A stretch of DNA of 17,882 nucleotides from an uncultured Gemmatimonadota bacterium. Lineage in GTDB: Bacteria > Gemmatimonadota > Gemmatimonadetes > Gemmatimonadales > Gemmatimonadaceae. Location: assembly GCA_946887155.1 (NCBI GenBank), contig CAMPKM010000013.1, positions 1-17,882 on the forward strand, given 5' to 3'. This document shows positions 6,604 through 17,882 of the stretch, piece after piece. How positions within the stretch are numbered: position 1 is the stretch's first letter; the number at the start of each line of letters is the position of its first letter. Both the position numbers and the translations under genes were made by a program. The notes beneath the pieces are model-generated. The model did no database searches and had not been told where the DNA came from. It worked only from the letters and a program-made list of their open reading frames with translations.

Positions 6604-8382
6604 ATGTCAAAAGGCGTTACCGTCTGGTTTACCGGTTTGTCGGGATCTGGCAAGACCACCGTCGCAACTCGTGTCCTTGAACTATTGCAGGAACGCCACA
6701 TATACGCCGAGCGCCTCGACGGCGACGTCGTCCGTCGGAGCCTGACTCGCGACCTCGGCTTTTCGAAGGAAGACCGCGACAAGAACATCGAGCGCGTCAC
6801 GTTCGTGGCCAAGCTGCTCACCCGGAACGGCGTCGTGGTCCTCTCGGCGTTCATCTCGCCCTACAAGCGCATGCGCGACAACGCGCGCGCTGAAATCGGT
6901 GATTTCGTGGAAGTGTACGTCCGCACGCCAATGGAGGTCCTGCTCGAGCGTGACGTGAAGGGCATGTACAAGAAAGCGATGGCTGGCGAGATCCAGGGAT
7001 TCACCGGGGTGAACGATCCATACGAAGAACCGGAAAATCCCGAGCTCGTCCTCGAGACGGCCAACGAGTCGATCGAGGAGAGCGCGCTGCGGGTGATCGA
7101 CCTGCTCGAAGAACGCGGCTATGTGCCAAAAGGCACGTCGGGCGCGGTGTCGGCGAAGGTCGACCGCTCCAGCGACGCCCGCAAGCTGGCAGAGTCCCGA
7201 AAGACACCTGGACCGAGCGTGCCCCATGGTGGTTCGCTGGTCAATCGCGAGCTCCAGGGCGATGCCCTCAAATCCGCGATCGCGCACGCGAAGGAACTGC
7301 CGCAGTTCACGCTCGACGAGCGCGAACTGAGCGATCTCGAACTGATTGGCGTGGGCGCGCTGTCGCCGCTGACCGGGTTCATGCGGCGCATGGACTACGA
7401 GACGGTCGTGGAAAGCATGCGGCTCTCGGATGGACTGATCTGGGCGATGCCCGTGACCAAGGCCGTCACGAAGGAACAGGCCGCGACCCTGAAGGAAGGA
7501 CAGGAGATCACGCTCGTCGACGAGAACGGCGAAGCGATGGCGATCATGCAGGTGACCGACATCTACTCGTACGACAAGAAGCGTGAGGCAGAGAAATGCT
7601 TCGGCACCACCGAGGACAAGCACCCCGGGGTGGCACGCCTCTACGCACAGGGAGACGTCCTGCTTGGCGGACCGATCCAGGTGCTTCGCCGGCCTGCGTA
7701 CAGCCAGTTCAATGACTACCGCCTGACGCCCATGGAAACGCGCAAGGCGATGGATGAGAAAGGGTGGAAGACCGTGGTCGCGTTCCAGACGCGCAATCCC
7801 GTGCACCGCGCCCACGAATACCTGCAGAAGGTCTCGCTGGAAACCATCGACGGCCTGATGCTGCATCCGCTGGTCGGCGCCACCAAGTCCGACGACGTGC
7901 CGGCCGATGTCCGCATGAAAACGTACGAGACGATTTTCGAGCACTACTACCCGAAGAACCGTTCGATGCTGGCCGTCTTCCCAGCCGCAATGCGTTATGC
8001 AGGACCGCGTGAGGCGGTCTGGCACGCGATCGCAAGGAAGAACTACGGTTGCACGCACTTCATCGTCGGTCGCGACCACGCGGGCGTCGGCAACTACTAC
8101 GGATCGTACGACGCCCAGACACTCATCAGCAGCTTCCCGGAACACGAACTCGGCATCATCCCGCTGAAGTACGAGCATACGTTCTATTGCAAGACGTGCG
8201 GGAGCATGGCGTCGACACGCTCCTGTCCGCACGGCAAGGAACATCACGTGATCCTCAGCGGCACCAAGGTTCGTGAAATGCTGACCAACGGTGAAATGCC
8301 GCCGGTCGAGTTCACGCGGCCGGAGGTGGCGAAGATCCTGATGGATGCCCACCAGTCCCAGGCCACGGCCGGCGCTCGCTAG
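6604..8382 (+). CDS. cysC-sat: Bifunctional APS kinase / ATP sulfurylase (CysC-Sat fusion)
   Basis: 592 residues with two complete enzymes in series. Residues 1 to about 180 are adenylyl-sulfate kinase: Walker A GLSGSGKTT (11-19), LDGD (38-41), FISPYKRMRD and GFTGVNDPYEEPENPE. Residues from about 205 to 585 are ATP sulfurylase: QTRNPVHRAH (395-404), GRDHAGVG (H492), HPLVGATKSDD and a C-terminal SGTKVREML. C529, C532, C541 and H547/H548 form a probable zinc site. Sulfate plus ATP gives APS, and a second ATP gives PAPS, the sulfate donor, in the cytoplasm. Kinase-first order matches animal PAPS synthase and is the reverse of the Aquifex-type Sat-CysC fusion. The ATG has only a weak GGA eight bases upstream. 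It heads a plus-strand unit with the next two genes. Confidence 0.95.
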   Translation: MSKGVTVWFTGLSGSGKTTVATRVLELLQERHIYAERLDGDVVRRSLTRDLGFSKEDRDKNIERVTFVAKLLTRNGVVVLSAFISPYKRMRDNARAEIGDFVEVYVRTPMEVLLERDVKGMYKKAMAGEIQGFTGVNDPYEEPENPELVLETANESIEESALRVIDLLEERGYVPKGTSGAVSAKVDRSSDARKLAESRKTPGPSVPHGGSLVNRELQGDALKSAIAHAKELPQFTLDERELSDLELIGVGALSPLTGFMRRMDYETVVESMRLSDGLIWAMPVTKAVTKEQAATLKEGQEITLVDENGEAMAIMQVTDIYSYDKKREAEKCFGTTEDKHPGVARLYAQGDVLLGGPIQVLRRPAYSQFNDYRLTPMETRKAMDEKGWKTVVAFQTRNPVHRAHEYLQKVSLETIDGLMLHPLVGATKSDDVPADVRMKTYETIFEHYYPKNRSMLAVFPAAMRYAGPREAVWHAIARKNYGCTHFIVGRDHAGVGNYYGSYDAQTLISSFPEHELGIIPLKYEHTFYCKTCGSMASTRSCPHGKEHHVILSGTKVREMLTNGEMPPVEFTRPEVAKILMDAHQSQATAGAR

Positions 8383-8385
8383 GCA

Positions 8386-9246
8386 GTGCCGAAGACCAAC
8401 GGCGAGCGCTTCGCCGACCTGCAACTGCATTCCTCTGCCTCCGACGGATCGGACCAGCCGTCGGAGGTGGTGCGTCGCGCGGCGCGCAAGGGATTTTCGG
8501 CCATCGCGCTGACCGATCACGATACCATGGAAGGCGTGCCCGAGGCCGCGGCGGAAGCCGCGGCCCACGGCATCGACCTCATCCCGGCCTGCGAGCTGTC
8601 GACGCTTGATGATGCCGAACGGCAGATCGACATCCTCGCCTACGGGATCGACATCGCCGACGCCGAGTTCCAGGCCACGCTGAACACGATTCGTTCCGGG
8701 CGGCTCGGCCGGGCGTTTCTCATGGTGCAGCGGCTCAACGAGTGCGGGTACCCGGTTTCGTGGGAGCGCGTTCAGGCCATCGCCGGCGGCGAGAACATCG
8801 GCCGGCCGCACGTCGCGAAGGCGATGGTCGAAGCCGGCGTCGTGCCGACGGTGAAGCACGCGTTCACGACGGAGTTTATCCTCGACGGCGGACGGTGCTA
8901 CGTTCAACGCGTGAAGATCACGCCGGTCGAGGCGATCGAGCAGATCCATCGCGCGGGCGGTGTCGCGGTCGCGGCGCACCCGGGACGCACCGGTCTCTCC
9001 GACGACGATGTCGCTGCCCTCGCCTCGTCAGGCCTCGATGGCATCGAGGTGCATTACCCGCGGCACTCGAAGGCGGAGACGGTCCGGTTCCTCGAGCTGG
9101 CGGGGCGGTTCGACCTCCTCGTAACGGGCGGTTCGGACGACCACGGTGACGTGAACGAGGGACGGCTCATGGGACGCGTGCGATTGCCCTGGCCGTTCGT
9201 CGAGCGTCTCAAGGAAGCGATTGCCCGGAGCGTCACGCGGCGCTGA
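8386..9246 (+). CDS. PHP-domain phosphoesterase, possibly 3',5'-nucleoside bisphosphate (pAp) phosphatase
   Basis: 286 residues from a GTG three bases after the fusion gene's stop, so probably translationally coupled. PHP-family metal motifs appear in order: DLQLHSSASDG (H15, D20), TDHDT (D44-D46), E70 in ACELS, H198 in AAHPGRTG, and GGSDDHGD (D251-H253). The usual first ligand pair is HxH; here the first position is Gln (Q13). The related Chromobacterium enzyme Cv1693 and the YciV/RNase AM group remove phosphate from pAp or nucleotide ends. PAPS-dependent sulfation releases pAp, so the position right after the PAPS synthase gene favours a pAp-recycling role. This remains inference; a short-RNA nuclease is the main alternative. 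Confidence 0.85.
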   Translation: MPKTNGERFADLQLHSSASDGSDQPSEVVRRAARKGFSAIALTDHDTMEGVPEAAAEAAAHGIDLIPACELSTLDDAERQIDILAYGIDIADAEFQATLNTIRSGRLGRAFLMVQRLNECGYPVSWERVQAIAGGENIGRPHVAKAMVEAGVVPTVKHAFTTEFILDGGRCYVQRVKITPVEAIEQIHRAGGVAVAAHPGRTGLSDDDVAALASSGLDGIEVHYPRHSKAETVRFLELAGRFDLLVTGGSDDHGDVNEGRLMGRVRLPWPFVERLKEAIARSVTRR

Positions 9247-9272
9247 GCCGCCCCGTCCTCATTCCTTTCCCG

Positions 9273-10775
9273 TTGCCCGACCCCGTCAGGCAGGATCCGC
9301 CTAACCAAGCCGGTTCCTTCCGCTGGCCCGCCGAACGGCCGCGGCAGACGCCTCCCGGCGGTGCACCCGTTACGCCGCCGGCGCCGCTTCCCTGGAAGCG
9401 GGTCGTCAAGTTCCTGCTCATCTGGGGAAGCGTCGGACTCGGCCTCCTCATCTATCTGCTGCCGGCACCGACCGGGCTCACGGTCGAAGGCAAGAACGCC
9501 TGGGCCATCTTCATTCTCTGCACCGGGCTCTGGGTCTCGAACGCCGTGCCTTTCGGGATCACGGGACTGCTGGCGATTGCGCTGCTCGCCCTCACCGGCA
9601 CCATGCGGACGTCGGAGGCGTTTGCGGCCTTCGGCAACTCGGCGGTCTTTTTCCTGATCGGCGTTTTCATCATCGCCGCCGCCCTGATCGAGAGCGGATT
9701 GAGCAAGCGTTGTGCGCTACTCTTTCTCCGGCCGTTCGAACGATCGCCGTATGCGTTTGCCGCCGGCATGATGTTCGTCGGCGCGTTCGGCACCCTGTTC
9801 ATGCCGAACCAGGCCACGTCGGCCCTGCTCTTTCCGATCGCGCTCGAGGTGGCGCTGGCGCTGCGCCTGGCGAAGGGGCGAAGCGCCTACGCCAAGGTCC
9901 TGTTCCTGTCGCTCGCGTGGGGGGCCATGATCGGGTCGAACTCGAGCTTCCTTGGCAGTACCCGCGCCGCGCTGGCGATCGGCATGCTGCAGGAAAAGCA
10001 CGGGATCGGGATTTCGTTCGGCCAGTGGGTCGTCGCGGGCCTCCCGATGGTCGTGCTGGGCTGTGCCATCGCCCCGCTGGTCCTGCGGCTCTGCTTCCCG
10101 CGCGAGGAAATCGCGTTTTCCGCGGCGCGGCAGGTGCTCGAGGATGCCGTGAAGGAGATGGGTCGCGCCGGACGGCGCCAGTGGACCGTTGGCGTCATCG
10201 TCCTTCTCACCATTGCCGCCTGGATCATCCTTGGCAGCCGCGTCGACCTCGCGATCATTGCGTTGCTGGGCAGCTTCGCCCTCTTCGCCACCCGTTGCAT
10301 CAGCTGGGACGAGGCGGAACGCCGCATCTATTGGAACATCGTCCTGATGTACGGCGGCGCGATTGCGTTAGGCATCGTGATCGACCGGACCGGGGCCGCG
10401 AAGTGGATCGTCGACGGAGTCCTCCAGGGCGCCACCATCCCACCGGCTCTCGCGGTGGCAGCCGTGGCCCTGGGATCGCTCATCCTGTCGGAGTTCATGA
10501 GCAACGTCGCGGCGGTAGCGGTGATGCTGCCGCTCGCTTTCAACCTCGCGACTCAACTGGGCGCCTCGCCGGTGGCGCTGACGCTGGCCACGTCCATCGG
10601 CGCCGGACTCGACTTCGCGCTGCCATTCAGCTCGGCGCCGAACACGATCGTTTTCTCCAGCGGCTACCTGCGCATGGTGGACGTGGTGAAGGCCGGTGGC
10701 GCGATGACCATCGTCTCGCTGCTGCTGGTGATGCTGCTGGTCTGGGTGTGGTGGCCGCTGCTCGGTCTCGTCTAA
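9273..10775 (+). CDS. DASS/SLC13-family anion transporter, probable sulfate permease
   Basis: About 500 residues starting at TTG 9273, 26 bases after the PHP gene. A proline-rich cytoplasmic tail of about 42 residues is followed by many hydrophobic helices arranged as two related halves. Family landmarks include WVSNAVPFGITGLLAIALL, IGSNSSFLGS and FALPFSSAPNTIVFSSGYL. In sodium/dicarboxylate or sulfate carriers the paired substrate loops carry SNT; here they read PNQ (178-180) and SNV (410-412). That leaves substrate uncertain, but the neighbouring sulfate-activation genes favour sulfate. No ribosome site precedes the TTG, and no ATG or GTG occurs in frame before the first helix, so the start is uncertain. 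The TAA stop overlaps the stop of the convergent gene. Confidence 0.85.
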   Translation: MPDPVRQDPPNQAGSFRWPAERPRQTPPGGAPVTPPAPLPWKRVVKFLLIWGSVGLGLLIYLLPAPTGLTVEGKNAWAIFILCTGLWVSNAVPFGITGLLAIALLALTGTMRTSEAFAAFGNSAVFFLIGVFIIAAALIESGLSKRCALLFLRPFERSPYAFAAGMMFVGAFGTLFMPNQATSALLFPIALEVALALRLAKGRSAYAKVLFLSLAWGAMIGSNSSFLGSTRAALAIGMLQEKHGIGISFGQWVVAGLPMVVLGCAIAPLVLRLCFPREEIAFSAARQVLEDAVKEMGRAGRRQWTVGVIVLLTIAAWIILGSRVDLAIIALLGSFALFATRCISWDEAERRIYWNIVLMYGGAIALGIVIDRTGAAKWIVDGVLQGATIPPALAVAAVALGSLILSEFMSNVAAVAVMLPLAFNLATQLGASPVALTLATSIGAGLDFALPFSSAPNTIVFSSGYLRMVDVVKAGGAMTIVSLLLVMLLVWVWWPLLGLV

Positions 10776-12577
10776 CGAACCCGTCGCCGACCGTCCAGGA
10801 GCCGTTGCAAGCCAGGAAGCACAGCCCGACCGGACACGCTGTCGACATAGTTGATTGTTTCCGCCGAGTCGTCGCGCCAGCGATACAACTCCTCTTCATC
10901 GCCCGCGAATCGCATCAGGTGCCACTCGCTGTTCAACACCCCATACACCTCACCGTGGCTCGCGCGGCGCGTCGCCGGTTGGTTGATCATTCGGCTGGAC
11001 ATGAACAACACGTAAGGATCCCCGTCATCGGTAAAGGACCTCGACATCAGGGACCGTCCCGGGATCGCCGAGTCTGAGATCCCCGCCGCGTCGATGATGG
11101 TTGCCGGAATGTCGGCCGTCGTTGCGAGTCCCGGCACGCGCACGCCCGCCGTTATCCGATTCGGATAGCGAAGCACCAGGGGCACGTGAACGATTGGCAG
11201 ATAGAGTCCGCTCCCGTGCTTGAATTCGCCATGTTCGCCGAACAGCTCACCGTGGTCGCTCGTGACAATGACCAGGGTCCGGTCCAGGTCGCCGCGCGAC
11301 CTCAATTCGGTGAAGAGGGCACCGACCACCGAATCGATCCACGCGATCGAGCCGTCATACTTGTCGACATTCGTTGCGCCGGCATTGAACCGGTCCGAGT
11401 ACGGCGTGGCGTATGGTTCGTGCGCGTCGAAGATGTTGAGCGTTGCGAACCATGGATGTTTTGTCCCGACGAGATCCCGCCAGGCAAGGAACGAGGCGGT
11501 GACCGCCGGGGCGCGCATCCGGTCCGGAGTAATAGGAGTCTGGGCACGGAGGTCGAAGCGCGCGATCGAGCGAACCATGCGCATGGGATCGCGAGTGACG
11601 ATTCCGCCGATGATTCCTCGCGCCAATGGCGTCTGGGTCAGCGTCGTATTCCAGACGATCTGGTCCAGGTCGTCCGGGTACGTCACATAACGATGGAATC
11701 CCGCCGCCAGGCCGGTTTCGGGACCTGCCCAGCCGGCATTGCCCATGAATGCACCCGTGAGATAACCGTGCTGCCGCAGCACGGTGCTCACTCGGGGGAG
11801 ATCGTCATTGGCGCGGCGAAGGTAACTCGCTCCCGTTTCGTGCCCCCACACCCCGGTGAGCAACGAAGCGTGCGAAGGCAGGGACCACGACGAGGGAGTA
11901 AATGCGTTGTCGTAGACGATGCCACTCGCAGCCAGTGAATCGATCGCCGCGGAAGTCGGCCGCTGGTAGCCGTAGAGGCTCAGGTTCGCGGCGCGAACCG
12001 TATCGAGAATCAGGAGCAGGACGTTCGGTGCATCCTCAGGCGCAGTTCGCGTTGCGCCAAGCGCGCTGCGTTCCTGCCACCACGAGAAAATGTGCGGCAA
12101 GCCACCATTCAGGACCAGCAGCAGCGCCATGACCGGTCCAGCACGGCGTGTCAGGCGCTGGAGGACTTCGGGGCGGAGTGTGCACCATCTGGAGACTTGC
12201 CACCCCATGCCTGCCGCCAGGACGACGAACGCCAATGGATGAATGCGGCGATACAACAGCAGGATCGAAAAGGCCGCGAGTCCGGCAAAGACTCCGTGAA
12301 CCGCGCAATAACCATTCGGGAGTCTGACAAACCTGAAGATGAGGGCTATTGGTACCGCCAGTGCGAGGAACACGCCAACGTAGGCAATGGGCGCCGTGAG
12401 TTCGAACAGCGGCGTCGTGCCCGTGAAGGCGTGTAGCACATGTTGCCGGAAGTTCACGACGGTCACGTGCCCAAACGCCGCAACGATCGCCCAGGCCACG
12501 GCAATTGCCATGACCCTGACCGGCGAAAGGCCTGTATCGCCGCCGTGATTCGCGGCCGGGTTCGACACGGATGTCAC
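10772..12577 (-). CDS. Membrane-anchored sulfatase/alkaline-phosphatase superfamily enzyme with Ser-type active site
   Basis: 601 residues from GTG 12577. Residues 1 to about 165 hold several hydrophobic helices; the rest is an extracytoplasmic sulfatase-fold domain. Visible motifs are LILDTVRA (D192), SSWSLPSH with S232 at the nucleophile position, and TSDHGELFGEHG (D441, H442). Classical sulfatases carry Cys-X-Pro-Ser-Arg for formylglycine conversion. Here it is Ser-Leu-Pro-Ser-His, without the Arg, so a true formylglycine sulfatase is doubtful. A phosphotransferase or phosphodiesterase like the LTA synthase or phosphoethanolamine-transferase relatives is possible. Context among polysaccharide and PAPS genes suggests a role in modifying a surface glycan. 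It converges on the transporter gene with stops overlapping at 10772-10775 and diverges from the second cysC. Confidence 0.82.
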   Translation of the reverse strand: MTSVSNPAANHGGDTGLSPVRVMAIAVAWAIVAAFGHVTVVNFRQHVLHAFTGTTPLFELTAPIAYVGVFLALAVPIALIFRFVRLPNGYCAVHGVFAGLAAFSILLLYRRIHPLAFVVLAAGMGWQVSRWCTLRPEVLQRLTRRAGPVMALLLVLNGGLPHIFSWWQERSALGATRTAPEDAPNVLLLILDTVRAANLSLYGYQRPTSAAIDSLAASGIVYDNAFTPSSWSLPSHASLLTGVWGHETGASYLRRANDDLPRVSTVLRQHGYLTGAFMGNAGWAGPETGLAAGFHRYVTYPDDLDQIVWNTTLTQTPLARGIIGGIVTRDPMRMVRSIARFDLRAQTPITPDRMRAPAVTASFLAWRDLVGTKHPWFATLNIFDAHEPYATPYSDRFNAGATNVDKYDGSIAWIDSVVGALFTELRSRGDLDRTLVIVTSDHGELFGEHGEFKHGSGLYLPIVHVPLVLRYPNRITAGVRVPGLATTADIPATIIDAAGISDSAIPGRSLMSRSFTDDGDPYVLFMSSRMINQPATRRASHGEVYGVLNSEWHLMRFAGDEEELYRWRDDSAETINYVDSVSGRAVLPGLQRLLDGRRRVR

Positions 12578-12654
12578 GCGCGAATCGTCAGATATGGGAC
12601 CCTCGAATGCCCGGGGGGTGGGGTGTCAAATTACATTCGATGGGCGGACCTCGC

Positions 12655-13335
12655 ATGGCCTCCGGCCCGTCCAGAGCGCGATTCAACAGACTGTCAATCC
12701 ATTCCGTGCTTTCGACGCCACTCCATCCCACGCAACAACCGGGCCCACAGGGCGCCACCCTGTGGTTTACCGGGCTGCCCTCGTCAGGCAAGTCGACGAT
12801 CGCCCGGGAGGTGTTTCAGCGCCTGCTCGACCGGGGCCTGCCCGTGGAGCTGCTCGACGGCGCGGAGGTCCGCGAAAGCCTGTCCCGCGGCCTGACGTTC
12901 TCCCGCGAGGATCGGGAGGAACACATTCGCCGCATCGGCTATGTCGCCAAGCTGCTCTCCCGAAACGGCGTGATCGCCATCTGTGCGGCGGTGTCCCCCT
13001 ACCGCGCGACGCGGGAAGAGGTCCGCAGGAACACGGCGCGCTTCGTCGAGATCTACGTCGAGTGCCCGGTTGAAGTGGCCGAGCAACGGGATAGCGACGG
13101 CTGGTACGCCCGGGCGCGGCGTGGCGAAGTCGAGGAATTCACCGGCGTGAACGCGCCGTACGAACCGCCCACGTCACCCGAGGTCCACGTCCATTCCGAC
13201 CGGGAATCGGTGGAGGACGCGGCGGCGAGGGTCATCGCGCGCCTCGAGGACCTGGACATCATTCAGCGCAAGTTAGATGAAGCGCGGGCGCAGGACGAGT
13301 TTCGCCGCCGCCTGGCGGCCCTGGGCTTCCAGTAG
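12655..13335 (+). CDS. cysC: APS kinase paralogue (CysC-like) with altered Mg/APS motif
   Basis: The core from 12754 is adenylyl-sulfate kinase: GATLWFTG, Walker A GLPSSGKST, FSREDREEHIRRIGYVAKLL, AAVSPYR and EFTGVNAPYEPPTSPE. It differs from the first copy: LDGD is LDGA, RDLGF is RGLTF, KGMYKKA is DGWYARA, and FISPYK is AVSPYR. Loss of the acidic residue in DGD could weaken catalysis or change substrate. The frame is open from ATG 12571, but that would overlap the start of the divergent gene at 12577. ATG 12640, ATG 12655 and GTG 12706 are all possible and none has a ribosome site; I chose 12655. Its stop TAG directly abuts the ATG of the amidotransferase gene, so the two are surely co-transcribed. 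Confidence 0.85.
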   Translation: MASGPSRARFNRLSIHSVLSTPLHPTQQPGPQGATLWFTGLPSSGKSTIAREVFQRLLDRGLPVELLDGAEVRESLSRGLTFSREDREEHIRRIGYVAKLLSRNGVIAICAAVSPYRATREEVRRNTARFVEIYVECPVEVAEQRDSDGWYARARRGEVEEFTGVNAPYEPPTSPEVHVHSDRESVEDAAARVIARLEDLDIIQRKLDEARAQDEFRRRLAALGFQ

Positions 13336-15252
13336 ATGTGCGGCATCGCCGGTTTCGTTCGCTCGTCAGGCACCACGGTGCCGGACGAGGCGCTGCTCCG
13401 GGCCATGTGCGATGCCATCACGCATCGCGGCCCTGATGACGACGGCCGCCAGCTGATCGGCGCGGCGGCGCTGGGGATGCGCCGCCTGAGCATCATCGAC
13501 GTCGCCGGCGGCCAGCAGCCCATCGCCAATGAAGCCGGCGACGTGACCGTGGTCTTCAATGGGGAGATCTACAACTATCGGGACCTTCGCGACCGCCTCC
13601 TGAAGGCGGGACACCGGCTCGCGACGCGCAGCGACACGGAGACGCTGGTCCACCTGTACGAGGATGACGGCGACCGGCTGGTCGACTCGCTGCGCGGCAT
13701 GTACGGCTTCGCGATCTGGGACGCGAACCGGCAGCGGCTGCTGCTGGGCCGGGACCGGCTCGGGATCAAGCCGCTGTACTACTGGCTGCGCCCCGACGGT
13801 CTCTCGTTCGCTTCCGAGCTGCGATCGTTCCTGGTCGACCCGGCGTTCACGCCCCGCCTGTCCGAGGAAGCGATCGCGCTATACCTCGCGTTAGGGTATA
13901 TCCCCGATCCCTGGTGCATCTTCGCCGGGGTGCGCAAGCTGCCGCCCGGCCACACGCTGGCCTGGACGCGCGAGCAGGGTACCTCGGTCACACGCTACTG
14001 GACGCCGGCACGGGACGAGGTGCGCATCGACCCCGCCGACGCCGTGGCCGAGCTGCGGCGGATCCTCGACGACGCGGTGCGCTCCCACCTCGAGTCCGAG
14101 GTACCGTTAGGCGCGTTCCTGTCCGGCGGCATCGACTCATCGACCGTGGTCGCCCTCATGGCGCGGGCCATGGACCGCCGGGTCCAGACGTTCTCCATCG
14201 GGTTCGAGGAACCGGAGTTCAACGAGGCCCCGCATGCGGCCCGCGTCGCCAAGGCGCTGGGCACCGACCATACGGAGCTCATCGTCCGGCCGGACGCCGA
14301 CCAGCTGGTCGAGGACGTGATCCGGGGCTTCGATGAGCCGTTCGCCGATTCCTCGGCGCTGCCGACGCTGCTGGTGTCGCACCTGGCGCGGGAACGCGTC
14401 ACCGTGGCGCTGTCCGGAGACGGTGGCGACGAACTCTTCGGTGGGTACACGCGTTATGCGCAGGTGAACGGCATGGCGGCGCCGGCGCCGGCCATCGCCC
14501 GTCGCCTGCTCCGCGGCCTCGCGCTCATGCGACCGCCGGGGGCCAAGGGACGTGCCTGGATGCTCAACGTGGGCAGCGGCGTACGTGGTCGTTATGCACG
14601 AACGGTGGCACAGCCGTTGTCAGTCGCCGAGGGAGGCATCGCGGCCGGGACGGTGGCCCGTCATCAGCCGTCGATCGAGCAGTTGCTCGACCCCTGGTTC
14701 GACCGGTTCGGCACGCGCGACTTCGTGACGCAGATGATGCTGGTCGACCTCGAGACGTACCTGCCGGGCGACATTCTCACCAAGGTCGATCGCATGAGCA
14801 TGGCCGTATCGCTCGAAGCGCGGGTGCCCCTGCTCGACCATCACGTCGTCGAGTTCGCGATGGCGCTTCCCAGCCACCTCAAACTGCAGGGCGAAACCGG
14901 GAAAGTGATCCTTCGCCAGGCGATCTCCGGCATCGTTCCCGATTCGGTGCTGCAGAAGCCGAAGCAGGGATTTGCGGTGCCGCTGGCGAACTGGTTCCGC
15001 GGGCCACTCAGGCACCGGATCGAGGCGCTGTCTGGCAAGGACGCACCGGTCGCCCAGTGGGTCGATGGGGACGCGATGCGCCGCGTGACGGCGGAGCACC
15101 TCGCCGGCCGGCGTGAGCATCCGGGGCTGATCTGGCGGCTGGTCGTGCTGAACGGGTGGCTGCGCGCGCTCGACGACGGGGCACTGGCCGGCCCGCAGCG
15201 CGTACATGACCTGCTACGCCGGACCGTTTCCGCGCGCGCGAAGGCGGGCTGA
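13336..15252 (+). CDS. asnB: Glutamine-hydrolysing asparagine synthase-type amidotransferase
   Basis: 638 residues. The N-terminus MCGIAGF exposes Cys2, the nucleophile of class II glutaminase domains; ITHRGPDDDG, RRLSIID and FNGEIYNY complete that half. The second half is the ATP-pyrophosphatase synthetase domain with SGGIDSS at 263-269, DEPFADSSALPT, ALSGDGGDELFGGY and later KVDRMSM and EARVPLLDHHVVEFA. Length and the segment YIPDPWCIFAGVRKLPPGH resemble amidotransferases found in exopolysaccharide and exosortase-A loci rather than housekeeping AsnB. Here it may amidate a sugar acid or make asparagine locally. The start is fixed by the zero-base junction with cysC and by Cys2. It ends two bases from the stop of the convergent gene. 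Confidence 0.93.
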   Translation: MCGIAGFVRSSGTTVPDEALLRAMCDAITHRGPDDDGRQLIGAAALGMRRLSIIDVAGGQQPIANEAGDVTVVFNGEIYNYRDLRDRLLKAGHRLATRSDTETLVHLYEDDGDRLVDSLRGMYGFAIWDANRQRLLLGRDRLGIKPLYYWLRPDGLSFASELRSFLVDPAFTPRLSEEAIALYLALGYIPDPWCIFAGVRKLPPGHTLAWTREQGTSVTRYWTPARDEVRIDPADAVAELRRILDDAVRSHLESEVPLGAFLSGGIDSSTVVALMARAMDRRVQTFSIGFEEPEFNEAPHAARVAKALGTDHTELIVRPDADQLVEDVIRGFDEPFADSSALPTLLVSHLARERVTVALSGDGGDELFGGYTRYAQVNGMAAPAPAIARRLLRGLALMRPPGAKGRAWMLNVGSGVRGRYARTVAQPLSVAEGGIAAGTVARHQPSIEQLLDPWFDRFGTRDFVTQMMLVDLETYLPGDILTKVDRMSMAVSLEARVPLLDHHVVEFAMALPSHLKLQGETGKVILRQAISGIVPDSVLQKPKQGFAVPLANWFRGPLRHRIEALSGKDAPVAQWVDGDAMRRVTAEHLAGRREHPGLIWRLVVLNGWLRALDDGALAGPQRVHDLLRRTVSARAKAG

Positions 15253-15253
15253 C

Positions 15254-16636
15254 CTAACGAGCCTGCCGCAGGACGGCTTGCGGTACCGCCGCCGGCGCCG
15301 GCGCGGACGCGTACCACGGCTCGCGACCGAGTATGTCTCCGGCCAGCCAGAGGATGCCGAAACTGAAGTATGTGAACGACAGGTGGCCGTATGTCCCGAA
15401 CAGCGAAGCGACACTGAAGGAAATCATCGCCAGCTGGAGGTAGAAGAGCAGCTGATGCTCCTTCGGCCGCGCATTCCGGATGCTGCGCCGCGATTTCTGC
15501 AGCTTCAGGAACACGGAACCGAAGAGCAGCAGGTAGAACGCGAGACCGGGAAACCCGGACTCCGCCGCAAGGCGCAGGTACGTGCTGTGGGTGTCCCGGT
15601 TCCCGCGGGCCGAATAGTTGAGTCCCAGGCGCGCCGACTCCAACCGGTGTTTCGTGGGCATCATGCCTGCCCCGATCCCGACGAGCGGATTATCACGTGC
15701 GGTGCGTGCCGCGATCATCCAGATCTTCCAGCGCGCTTCGGCTGACCCTTCCTTGTCCACGCCTTGCATGCCGCTGGAGATCGACGCGTTCGACAGGCCG
15801 GATACGCGATCCCACACGTCCTTCGGCGCCACGATGGCCGCCAGGCCGAACAGCGCGGCGATCAGGAACAGGTCCCGGCCACGGTTCTTGCTGGTCAGTG
15901 GAAGGAGGATCACCGAGGTACCCAGCGCGAGAATCGCTCCGCGCGACTGGGTGAGCATGACGATGAGCGCCAGCATCGCCACCCCGATGAGTGCCGCCCA
16001 TCGGAAGATCTTCGTGCGTTCGACCGTCGCTACGCCCGCGGCCACGCCCAGCGGAAAGATCGAGAGCGCGGCGAGGTCGTTCGGGTTGTTGAAGATGAAG
16101 TTCCACGCGACGCGCCCGAATTCCGTGCAGCGACAGATGTACTGGTTGAAAAGCGCCCCGCGCACCGGATAGAGCGCAAACAGCGCCAGCCAGGCGATCA
16201 GAACCATGCGGAGTTCGGCAGCGTTCCGCACCACGTTCATGACACAGAACATGATGATCCACAACTTCCCCAAGTCGATTAGCGCATTGGTCGTGACGAT
16301 CGTGGACGTCGTCGTCGCGAGACCGAAGCAGCTCCAGATGATCAACAGGCCGAAGAACTGCAGCGGCGCCGGGAAACGCAACTGGCCACCGCGCAGCAGC
16401 ACACCGATGCCAAGCAGCGCGACCGCCACCTCACCCGCCGCCAGCTTGTACGAGTGGATGAGCCACATGTAGAACACCAACGCGACGAGACCAAGTCCCA
16501 GTCGCAGCGGCTCCTGCGTCACGAACGGAAACGGGTGCAGCGGTGCCGGTGCGGCGACTGCCTGGGCGCGCAGCGGCATCGCGGCATTTGGCCGTGTGTG
16601 TCGTGCGCTGCGCCATCCTCGGAGTGACTGCCTCAT
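15254..16636 (-). CDS. O-antigen ligase/polymerase-like membrane protein (Wzy/WaaL type)
   Basis: 460 residues with a polar N-terminus of about 40 residues, then many hydrophobic helices. TQSRGAILAL follows the mid-protein helices, and a large loop carries GIGAGMMPTKH and RDTHSTYLRLAAESGFPG (R348, H350), the signature region of O-antigen ligase family proteins. These enzymes transfer or polymerise undecaprenyl-pyrophosphate-linked glycans on the periplasmic side. The ATG at 16636 has no evident ribosome site; Met20 (about 16579) is an alternative. The gene converges on the amidotransferase gene. Its TAG stop (15256-15254) lies in the CGTTAGG word, with the preceding codon CGT. Polymerase and ligase, and lipid or protein glycosylation, cannot be separated here. 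Confidence 0.85.
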   Translation of the reverse strand: MRQSLRGWRSARHTRPNAAMPLRAQAVAAPAPLHPFPFVTQEPLRLGLGLVALVFYMWLIHSYKLAAGEVAVALLGIGVLLRGGQLRFPAPLQFFGLLIIWSCFGLATTTSTIVTTNALIDLGKLWIIMFCVMNVVRNAAELRMVLIAWLALFALYPVRGALFNQYICRCTEFGRVAWNFIFNNPNDLAALSIFPLGVAAGVATVERTKIFRWAALIGVAMLALIVMLTQSRGAILALGTSVILLPLTSKNRGRDLFLIAALFGLAAIVAPKDVWDRVSGLSNASISSGMQGVDKEGSAEARWKIWMIAARTARDNPLVGIGAGMMPTKHRLESARLGLNYSARGNRDTHSTYLRLAAESGFPGLAFYLLLFGSVFLKLQKSRRSIRNARPKEHQLLFYLQLAMISFSVASLFGTYGHLSFTYFSFGILWLAGDILGREPWYASAPAPAAVPQAVLRQAR

Positions 16637-17250
16637 TTCACGTGATCGTCGAGTCGCTGGTTGGATCGTTCACATCAAACAATGACGAGCGCACGCGCGA
16701 AAACAAAAAAAGTCGGTGGAATCCTTCAATGTGTGCGCAATGTCACCGCACGGACCTGTTCGAAATTCTAAAAAGCGCCTCGCGAGAACTGCTCTCTCTC
16801 TGAAGTGGTGAGAATCACTCTCCCTTAAGACGTATCACTGTTGTCTCAAGTTACCAGCGCGCGCCCGTACGCGGGGCCGTTGTATCTGCCACGCGATCGG
16901 ACGCGACGAGTGCGTCGAGCATCGACGCATGCACTGGTCACCGGTCACGTTCGCGTGCCATCGGAACGCATGGACCGATGCGGACCCGCGCCCTGTTGCA
17001 GGACGCCGGTGTGGGGCACGGCGCGTGATGGAAACCGACAACGGAAGAATGTCACCGCCTCTCCGTACACCCGAGCCGGTGACGGGGGGCACGTTCATCG
17101 TGTAAGCAAGCGCAAACTCGGCGTGGTCGCGTATCGCGTTATGCGACAACATGTTAGAGAAGTCTATTTGTTACTGCCCTGTTTGCGGTCTCGTCTATTC
17201 GGCGAGAAGTCATGTCCGACAACTGATGTCCGCAGGTGCCTCCTCCGGGA
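16637..17250. other. Long non-coding region with inverted repeats
   Basis: About 610 bases. I found no frame with a ribosome site and family-like sequence. The first 200 bases are less GC-rich, with A and T runs near 16705 and 16770, and probably hold the promoter of the minus-strand ligase gene, though I cannot place its boxes. From about 16850 the DNA is GC-rich, with several short inverted repeats. The part from 17100 on should contain the promoter for the riboswitch transcript. No tRNA, rRNA or CRISPR pattern is seen. Confidence 0.5.
16911..16929. repeat. Perfect inverted repeat TGCGTCGA-GCA-TCGACGCA
   Basis: Eight-base arms around a three-base loop make a strong hairpin, with no T-run after it. 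Further arms nearby are CATCGG/CCGATG (16959-16980) and CGCAT/ATGCG (16967-16982). They could be binding sites, part of a structured RNA, or a terminator without a T-run. Confidence 0.5.
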
Positions 17251-17252
17251 GG
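17239..17252 (+). promoter_or_regulatory. Hairpin CCTCC-TCCG-GGAGG just before the aptamer
   Basis: A five-pair stem with a four-base loop whose 3' arm shares bases 17251-17252 with the proposed P1 closing strand of the riboswitch. Its 5' arm is complementary to the GGAG ribosome site at 17355-17358. It may therefore take part in the switching mechanism. Confidence 0.4.
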
Positions 17253-17351
17253 ACACCACGATACGGCAAACCAGTCGAAAGGCTGGGACGCAAAGCCCCG
17301 AGGCTACAGCGCGACGCACCGCGCCATGCCAGTCGAGCCGCCGAACGGTCC
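17251..17351 (+). promoter_or_regulatory. Cyclic-di-GMP-I riboswitch (GEMM motif)
   Basis: The conserved GEMM-I core is present in order: GGCAAACC (17265-17272), stem CCAGTC/GGCTGG capped by a GAAA tetraloop (17271-17286), and GGGACGCAAAGCC (17285-17297). Then come the tetraloop-receptor-like CCGAGGCTA, a second stem GCGC/GCGC (17309-17324) and the closing segment ATGCCAGTCGAGCCGCC. These align closely with the Vibrio Vc2 aptamer as I remember it, including CACG before the core. GGAC (17251-17254) can pair with GTCC (17348-17351) as the outer P1 helix. The lipoprotein start codon is 15 bases beyond. There is no T-rich terminator between aptamer and gene, so control is more likely at translation. 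The ligand, cyclic di-GMP, usually governs sessile or motile behaviour and matrix production. Confidence 0.9.
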
Positions 17352-17354
17352 ACT

Positions 17355-17359
17355 GGAGA
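17355..17359 (+). promoter_or_regulatory. Ribosome binding site (GGAGA) of the lipoprotein gene
   Basis: GGAGA ends 7 bases before ATG 17367 and starts 3 bases after the proposed end of the riboswitch P1 helix, close enough for folding to affect ribosome access. Confidence 0.65.
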
Positions 17360-17366
17360 AGCACCG

Positions 17367-17882
17367 ATGCGTCTGACGCTCCGGCACGCGCTTGCCGCCG
17401 TCATTACCTGCACGCTCAACGCGTGCAGCGGGAATGAGGCCGATCCTGCCTCACCCGGCCCTGGAATCGAGCAGAAGCTTCATGTCTCGTTGTCGGCACA
17501 TGTCGACACTATTCCCGAGTCGACGTCGAAGACATTTACGGCCCGCGTCACCGACCAGACAGGATTCCTGAAATCGGTCCCGGTCACGTGGTCGTCCAGT
17601 GACCCGAACGTCGCGTCGGTTGCGAGCGGGAACGTTACCGGCGTCACGCCTGGTACCGCCTGGGTCGTCGCATCGGTCACCGGCGCACGCGACAGCGTGC
17701 ACGTGGTCGTGACCACGAATGATCTGACACTCGATATCCAGCCCAGCGCCGCCGCGGTGGCCATGGGCGACACCGTGGACTTCGTCGCCACGCTGCGTAC
17801 GCGCAGTGGCGACATTCTCGCCGTCAACACCTTCGCCTGGAACAGCAGCGACACTGCCGCGGCGCAGTTTGTCGGTGGCGGT
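17367..17882 (+). CDS. Lipoprotein with bacterial Ig-like (BIG2-type) domains, C-terminus beyond window
   Basis: 172 codons, open at the window end. The N-terminus MRLTLRHALAAVITCTLNAC has a charged start, a hydrophobic core and a lipobox LNAC with C20 as the probable lipidated residue. This implies export and membrane anchoring. After a linker of about 20 residues comes an Ig-like domain (about 38-115): VTWSSSDPNVASV, then GNVTGVTPGTAWVVASV, the usual BIG2 pattern. A second starts near residue 118 (NDLTLDIQPSAAAVAMGDTVDF) with NTFAWNSSDTAAAQFV. Such repeats build surface stalks, adhesins or matrix proteins. The start is supported by GGAGA 7 bases upstream. Placement behind a c-di-GMP riboswitch fits a biofilm or surface role; the functional C-terminal part is not visible. 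Confidence 0.88.
   Translation, partial: MRLTLRHALAAVITCTLNACSGNEADPASPGPGIEQKLHVSLSAHVDTIPESTSKTFTARVTDQTGFLKSVPVTWSSSDPNVASVASGNVTGVTPGTAWVVASVTGARDSVHVVVTTNDLTLDIQPSAAAVAMGDTVDFVATLRTRSGDILAVNTFAWNSSDTAAAQFVGGG

What the first reader, a model, noticed from the sequence alone, without database searches (positions are those of the whole stretch)
17251..17882. c-di-GMP-I riboswitch controlling an Ig-like lipoprotein
All GEMM-I core blocks are readable at 17257-17345, immediately before a lipoprotein with BIG2-like repeats. This ties a surface or matrix protein to cyclic di-GMP beside a polysaccharide locus. The same signal could coordinate glycan and protein parts of a biofilm matrix.
Basis: partly seen in the sequence, partly recalled or inferred. 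Interest (0 to 1): 0.75.

Follow-up and report, generated by a model that had tools for sequence, protein, structure and literature searches.

The report
c-di-GMP riboswitch before glycan-enzyme-like lipoprotein
A bacterium related to soil Gemmatimonadaceae carries a standard RNA sensor for the signal molecule cyclic di-GMP just before a surface protein that ends in a sugar-polymer-modifying enzyme fold, and many relatives keep the same sensor before surface lipoproteins, which suggests direct signal control of how these cells remodel their coat.

Summary
RF01051 (c-di-GMP-I) matches window 17255-17345 at 68.1 bits (E 9.2e-12), 21 nt before an ATG. The gene, cut by the window end, encodes a 1372-aa lipoprotein (P0008): about nine Big_2 repeats and a C-terminal domain that AlphaFold2 folds as a parallel beta-helix (pLDDT 93). 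Best structural matches are alginate C5-epimerases, the Vibrio matrix lyase RbmB and alginate lyases, but an adhesin and NosD also match. A matrix-modifying enzyme is thus likelier than a purely structural protein. RF01051 occurs in 123 of 179 Gemmatimonadaceae genomes; of 99 sites examined 75 lie 9-35 nt before the called start, and 65 of 86 products carry a lipobox against 29 of 215 background ORFs. The short spacer and pairing between upstream leader and ribosome site (GC-stratified z -5.0) suggest translational control. I lean to c-di-GMP lowering translation (about 0.55), but energies over 70 leaders show no direction, and the window's own value points the other way. Known riboswitch class; its use in this phylum was not found in the papers searched.

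The parts
17255..17345 (+). c-di-GMP-I riboswitch aptamer (RF01051, model positions 1-87)
   Evidence: 68.1 bits, E 9.2e-12
17231..17260 (+). Upstream hairpin P0: core arms 17235-17243 and 17248-17257, loop 17244-17247; two weak outer pairs use 17259-17260, the P1 5' strand
   Evidence: pairs listed; z -1.9 for 17223-17260
17235..17254 (+). 5' side of the alternative long helix (extended P1). It shares 17235-17239, 17241 and 17243 with the P0 5' arm; the Shine-Dalgarno core GGAG pairs with 17243-17246, mostly P0's loop
   Evidence: 16 pairs; duplex energy -25.5 kcal/mol
17348..17365 (+). 3' side of the alternative long helix; contains the Shine-Dalgarno GGAG (17355-17358)
17367..17882 (+). Start of the lipoprotein gene (ATG 17367, Cys20); runs off the window; full product is P0008, 1372 aa, identical over the 171 residues compared
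15254..16636 (-). O-antigen ligase / Wzy_C-like membrane protein, divergently placed neighbour
13336..15252 (+). Glutamine-dependent asparagine synthase-like enzyme
12571..13335 (+). APS kinase
10772..12577 (-). Sulfatase-family protein
9273..10775 (+). Sodium/sulfate-type symporter
6604..8382 (+). APS kinase - ATP sulfurylase fusion (PAPS synthesis); used to find relatives

Best explanation
17255-17345 is a genuine c-di-GMP-I riboswitch that acts on translation of the gene starting at 17367. The gene makes a 1372-aa lipoprotein: about nine Big_2 repeats as a stalk and a C-terminal parallel beta-helix domain that probably binds and modifies (cleaves or epimerises) an exopolysaccharide, perhaps the possibly sulfated one made by the neighbouring locus. 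Proposed mechanism: without ligand the upstream arm (17235-17243) is held in a local hairpin and the ribosome site is free; ligand closes P1, which favours zipping of the arm and the hairpin's loop onto 17348-17365, covering the Shine-Dalgarno sequence, so c-di-GMP lowers translation. Shown by computation: aptamer match, spacing, product architecture, predicted fold, recurrence in the family. Inferred: ligand binding, translational mode, direction (OFF about 0.55), enzyme activity and substrate.
Against: Direction: over 70 leaders the opening energy of the ribosome site shows no consistent change when the aptamer is enforced (p 0.14), and for the window it becomes easier to open, 10.8 to 6.9 kcal/mol, against the OFF model. 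5 of 14 leaders folded in detail favour the state without the closing helix, and in one that favours it the Shine-Dalgarno stays 0.59 unpaired. In the window the Shine-Dalgarno core pairs mainly with P0's loop, so the hairpin alone does not hide it. Shared use of hairpin arm and Shine-Dalgarno partner is only mildly above permutation (28 of 72 against 22.0, p 0.07; mean nucleotides p 0.02; Shine-Dalgarno pairing p 0.09). Enzyme: matches include the adhesin PfbA, NosD and tailspikes; Foldseek TM-scores are modest (TMq about 0.2-0.5); catalytic residues were not mapped. Beta-helix relatives occur in only 26 of 179 genomes, and 42 of 56 are not behind a listed riboswitch (listing cut near 62 bits), so this target is a minority of the regulon and often not riboswitch-linked.
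Confidence: 0.65

Rival explanations
1. Same riboswitch, opposite logic: c-di-GMP binding frees the ribosome site (ON), so the lipoprotein is made in the biofilm state as an adhesin, a matrix cross-linker or a polysaccharide-maturing epimerase.
For: In the unconstrained ensemble the window's start codon is mostly paired (AUG 0.35 unpaired), and enforcing the aptamer lowers the opening energy. AlgE epimerases are the top structural matches and the adhesin PfbA is also listed. A surface adhesin under a c-di-GMP-I ON switch is known: Cap of Bacillus thuringiensis (PMC4933901, abstract and outline).
Against: The upstream sequence complementary to the ribosome site encloses the aptamer, so closing P1 should favour sequestration; Vc2, with translational control, is described as OFF.
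Confidence: 0.32
2. The aptamer has changed ligand and senses 3',3'-cGAMP (GEMM-Ib type).
For: GEMM-I aptamers have been retargeted elsewhere; four relatives carry A at the position equivalent to G20.
Against: The window has G at this position (17265); in a Geobacter GEMM-Ib riboswitch A20G switches selectivity to c-di-GMP (PMC6456294, passages).
Confidence: 0.04
3. Transcriptional control: the aptamer governs termination or Rho access, not ribosome access.
For: Several c-di-GMP-I riboswitches work on terminators: Cd1 (passages), Bc2 (abstract), Bc1 (abstract in the listing).
Against: Only 21 nt separate aptamer and ATG; no terminator-like site in 16600-17420 (a weak test); spacing is 9-35 nt in 75 of 99 sites.
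Confidence: 0.1
4. Chance or decayed aptamer without regulatory role.
For: Two non-standard pairs, variant receptor, short P1.
Against: E 9.2e-12; retained at the same place in L001 and before homologous beta-helix genes in other genomes.
Confidence: 0.02

Closest known systems
Vc2 c-di-GMP-I riboswitch of Vibrio cholerae (RF01051)
   Same: Aptamer class and pocket G; proposed translational mode with P1 as control point (PMC9262584 passages).
   Different: Different target gene and lineage; here the leader upstream of the aptamer offers a sequence complementary to the ribosome site; receptor variant CUACAG.
RbmB, polysaccharide lyase of the V. cholerae matrix
   Different: Here a lipoprotein on a Big_2 stalk directly behind a riboswitch; activity untested.
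Alginate C5-epimerases AlgE4/AlgE6, PL6 lyases and alginate lyase 6kfn (PL31, family name recalled)
   Different: 13-18% identity in those rows; no catalytic residue mapped; substrate unknown.
Bc2-Cap of Bacillus thuringiensis
   Same: c-di-GMP-I riboswitch before a surface protein (abstract).
   Different: Transcriptional ON switch; collagen adhesion protein.

Membership tests
c-di-GMP-I riboswitch (RF01051) | Covariance-model score above gathering threshold over the full model | tested here: met
   68.1 bits against 35, model 1-87
c-di-GMP-I riboswitch (RF01051) | Ligand-contact G20, A47 and C92 equivalents | tested here: met
   Read from the cmscan alignment: G 17265, A 17292, CC at 17341-17342; A47 and C92 roles and numbering recalled, G20 role from PMC9262584
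c-di-GMP-I riboswitch (RF01051) | GNRA tetraloop and its receptor | tested here: inconclusive
   GAAA at 17277-17280 present; receptor strand CUACAG differs from consensus CUAAG
c-di-GMP-I riboswitch (RF01051) | P1 closing helix | tested here: inconclusive
   Two pairs plus an optional GGAC/GUCC extension
c-di-GMP-I riboswitch (RF01051) | Binds c-di-GMP and changes expression | not testable with these tools
   -
GEMM-Ib (3',3'-cGAMP) riboswitch | A at position 20 | tested here: not met
   G at 17265
Big_2 lipoproteins | Signal peptide with lipobox Cys and Big_2 repeats | tested here: met
   Cys20 after LNA in the translation, a loose lipobox that my script pattern did not accept; nine Big_2 stretches in P0008
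Beta-helix polysaccharide lyases/epimerases (PL6, AlgE, RbmB, 6kfn) | Right-handed parallel beta-helix fold | tested here: met
Beta-helix polysaccharide lyases/epimerases (PL6, AlgE, RbmB, 6kfn) | Family catalytic residues | not tested
   Many polar residues are invariant in 30 sequences but were not mapped onto an active site
Beta-helix polysaccharide lyases/epimerases (PL6, AlgE, RbmB, 6kfn) | Family-level sequence membership | tested here: inconclusive
   Pfam Beta_helix below cut-off for P0008 and no lyase family matched it; Chondroitinas_B matches 2 of 91 riboswitch-linked proteins

The most novel reading that the evidence does not exclude
In Gemmatimonadaceae the c-di-GMP-I riboswitch is a main, direct output of c-di-GMP onto the cell surface: many different lipoproteins with lyase-, epimerase- or hydrolase-like ends have been put behind the same translational switch, so that matrix-remodelling enzymes are made as c-di-GMP falls (a dispersal programme without transcription factors), with a side branch whose A20 aptamers may read cGAMP.
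Probability: 0.25. Interest if true: 0.72.

Novelty: new member of a known kind. Interest (0 to 1): 0.5.

Why it matters
c-di-GMP governs building and leaving of biofilms. Here a sensor for it sits directly on messages for surface lipoproteins, some with glycan-enzyme-like ends, in a widespread but little-cultured phylum. If the OFF logic holds, it gives a one-step route from falling c-di-GMP to matrix breakdown. The large set of sites (123 of 179 genomes) makes the question testable.

Tried and rejected
Own genome: not held, so the window's contig could not be extended; P0008 was used instead. Literature: (Gemmatimonadetes, c-di-GMP riboswitch) 0 papers; (Gemmatimonad, riboswitch, c-di-GMP) 1 paper, a heavy-metal review with one mention of each, seen in the listing only; (c-di-GMP riboswitch, lipoprotein, polysaccharide lyase) 0; seen as listings; a review of tandem riboswitches (PMC9481103, passages) has no 'Gemmatimona'. 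Thermodynamic proof of the switch direction failed. The A and B rows came from a wrongly applied constraint and are discarded (one search replaces them); its unconstrained rows stand. NCBIfam on the 91 riboswitch-linked proteins listed mostly response-regulator and GGDEF models, five members each. The promoter scan found nothing, uninformative for this phylum. A second class of downstream C-terminus (ending like KQFNQ..SYRYL; L098, L172, L207) was not folded; L172 matched no Pfam family over its last 440 residues. The Big_2 part of P0008 was not folded.

Rows and limits: of the 123 genomes with a match, 85 were sampled: the best listed site of 79 genomes, four further sites of those genomes, and 15 sites of six genomes; with the window 99 sites. 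Two of those 15 are below the family cut-off. Starts were called by a script that favoured lipobox starts within 260 nt; some frames are short or doubtful (for example L169, L183, L186). Eight of the 99 with starts outside 9-100 nt were left out of the Pfam count (91), and there only the last 440 residues were scanned, so N-terminal Big_2 repeats are undercounted. Thirteen of the 99 with products under 150 aa were left out of the lipobox comparison (86). The 215 background ORFs come from 20 partly overlapping loci around relatives, not from whole genomes, were chosen by length alone, and include riboswitch-linked genes; any early start was allowed for them. Leaders: 75 of 99 were usable, 72 after dropping near-duplicates; two more were dropped. 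After rechecking, the odds for OFF were lowered from 0.6 to 0.55 and the overall confidence from 0.68 to 0.65, because in the window the Shine-Dalgarno core pairs mostly with the hairpin's loop, not its arm.

Full report
Observation. Rfam RF01051 matches window 17255-17345 + over its full length at 68.1 bits, E 9.2e-12, the only gathering-level match in the window; a permissive scan of 16640-17882 gives the same site and leaves out two weaker same-clan matches. Pocket G (17265), GAAA tetraloop (17277-17280) and the 3' CC (17341-17342) are in place; two pairs are non-standard and the receptor strand is a variant (CUACAG). The aptamer ends 21 nt before ATG 17367.

Origin. The APS kinase-ATP sulfurylase of the window is 83% identical to that of a Gemmatimonadaceae MAG (L001) and 66-77% to five other loci titled Gemmatimonadaceae or Gemmatimonadetes. 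L001 has the aptamer at the same place, 71.5 bits, 23 nt before a 1395-aa counterpart of the window gene. Of the six loci, only L001's stretch held the aptamer; all six genomes have at least one site.

Setting. Upstream lie glycosyltransferase, NAD-dependent epimerase, sulfatase, sulfate symporter, two APS kinases (one fused to ATP sulfurylase), asparagine synthase-like and O-antigen-ligase-like genes. In G001, the genome of L001, a convergent sulfotransferase gene follows the counterpart, and beyond it lies a second beta-helix protein whose domain is 65% identical; G001 has only one RF01051 match. A sulfated exopolysaccharide is a reasonable guess, not shown.

Lineage. RF01051 occurs in 123 of 179 Gemmatimonadaceae genomes, 72 of 101 in an order-wide sample (71 above cut-off), 0 of 14 control genomes. 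I examined 99 sites from 85 of the 123 genomes plus the window. 75 of 99 lie 9-35 nt before the called start; 65 of 86 products of 150 aa or more carry a lipobox against 29 of 215 background ORFs (Fisher p 6e-25); with one site per genome 58 of 75. 92 of 99 aptamers have the pocket motif GGC. Of 91 products scanned over their last 440 residues: Big_2 19, Beta_helix 12, Polysacc_lyase_14 6, GGDEF 5, Polysacc_lyase 4, 3keto-disac_hyd 4, subtilase 4, STAS 3, GH6 1, classes overlapping and many of the 91 without any of these. Reciprocally, 56 beta-helix relatives (E 1e-30 or better) occur in 26 of 179 genomes; by hand comparison of coordinates 14 of the 56 follow a listed riboswitch on the same strand within about 3.1 kb, a lower bound because one search lists places only down to about 62 bits. 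So the link recurs but is neither exclusive nor universal, and the beta-helix proteins are a minority of the targets.

Mechanism. The short spacer points to translation; the absence of terminator-like sites agrees but is weak. Upstream of many aptamers lies a hairpin (mean z -1.03 against -0.31 for a far-upstream control, p 9e-5, 72 leaders). The upstream region can instead pair with the ribosome site beyond the aptamer; in the window 16 pairs, 17235-17254 with 17348-17365, -25.5 kcal/mol. Seven of the nine hairpin 5'-arm nucleotides (17235-17239, 17241, 17243) are used in both; the Shine-Dalgarno core pairs with 17243-17246, mostly the hairpin's loop. Over 72 leaders own-partner pairing is stronger than swapped partners (-18.6 against -16.6; GC-stratified z -5.0, 0 of 10000), than shuffled upstream regions (p 1e-5) and than pairing to the coding region (p 0.012). 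The stricter test that the hairpin arm itself is the Shine-Dalgarno partner is weak (28 of 72 against 22.0 expected, p 0.07). Because the alternative helix encloses the aptamer, ligand closure of P1 should favour it, giving an OFF switch like Vc2 (PMC9262584, passages). For the window the Shine-Dalgarno is 0.80 unpaired without and 0.11 with this helix; 9 of 14 leaders favour the state with the closing helix, 5 the other. Against this, the whole ribosome site of the window opens more easily when the aptamer is enforced (10.8 to 6.9 kcal/mol), and 70 leaders show no net direction. I hold OFF at about 0.55.

Biology. If OFF, the enzyme is made when c-di-GMP falls, like a dispersal lyase; RbmB is such an enzyme in Vibrio (PMC7768729, passages). 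If ON, an epimerase or adhesin role in matrix building fits better. G001 has 17 GGDEF matches, so the signal is likely present.

Novelty. The riboswitch is a new member of a known class. Its use before such lipoproteins in this phylum was not found in the searches named, which cover open-licence PMC papers only.

Noticed in passing
L190, L197, L204, L212 (sites in G138, G153, G142, G147): Four RF01051 sites carry A at the G20-equivalent position (AAGAGCAAA). Three lie 84-94 nt before the called start; three STAS matches among the 91 scanned products (members not named there) are presumably these. Candidate cGAMP-type switches in this family.
   Followed up: partly
L146, L151, L152, L153, L175: Five sites lie 11 nt before near-identical starts of response-regulator genes with a GGDEF-like domain (five GGDEF matches; L146 checked): possible feedback on c-di-GMP signalling.
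   Followed up: partly
L097:5019-12181 and L167: Two riboswitch-lipoprotein units in direct succession, each followed by its own beta-helix protein.
   Followed up: partly
L096:7995-10028 +: Second beta-helix protein with a 65% identical domain and no Pfam match, oriented against the riboswitch-linked one in G001.
   Followed up: no
L098, L172, L207: A different riboswitch-linked C-terminus ending like KQFNQ..SYRYL; no Pfam match over the last 440 residues of L172.
   Followed up: no
window 6604-13335: Dense sulfate-activation set (APS kinase-ATP sulfurylase fusion, second APS kinase, sulfate symporter, sulfatase) inside a polysaccharide locus: possibly a sulfated exopolysaccharide.
   Followed up: partly
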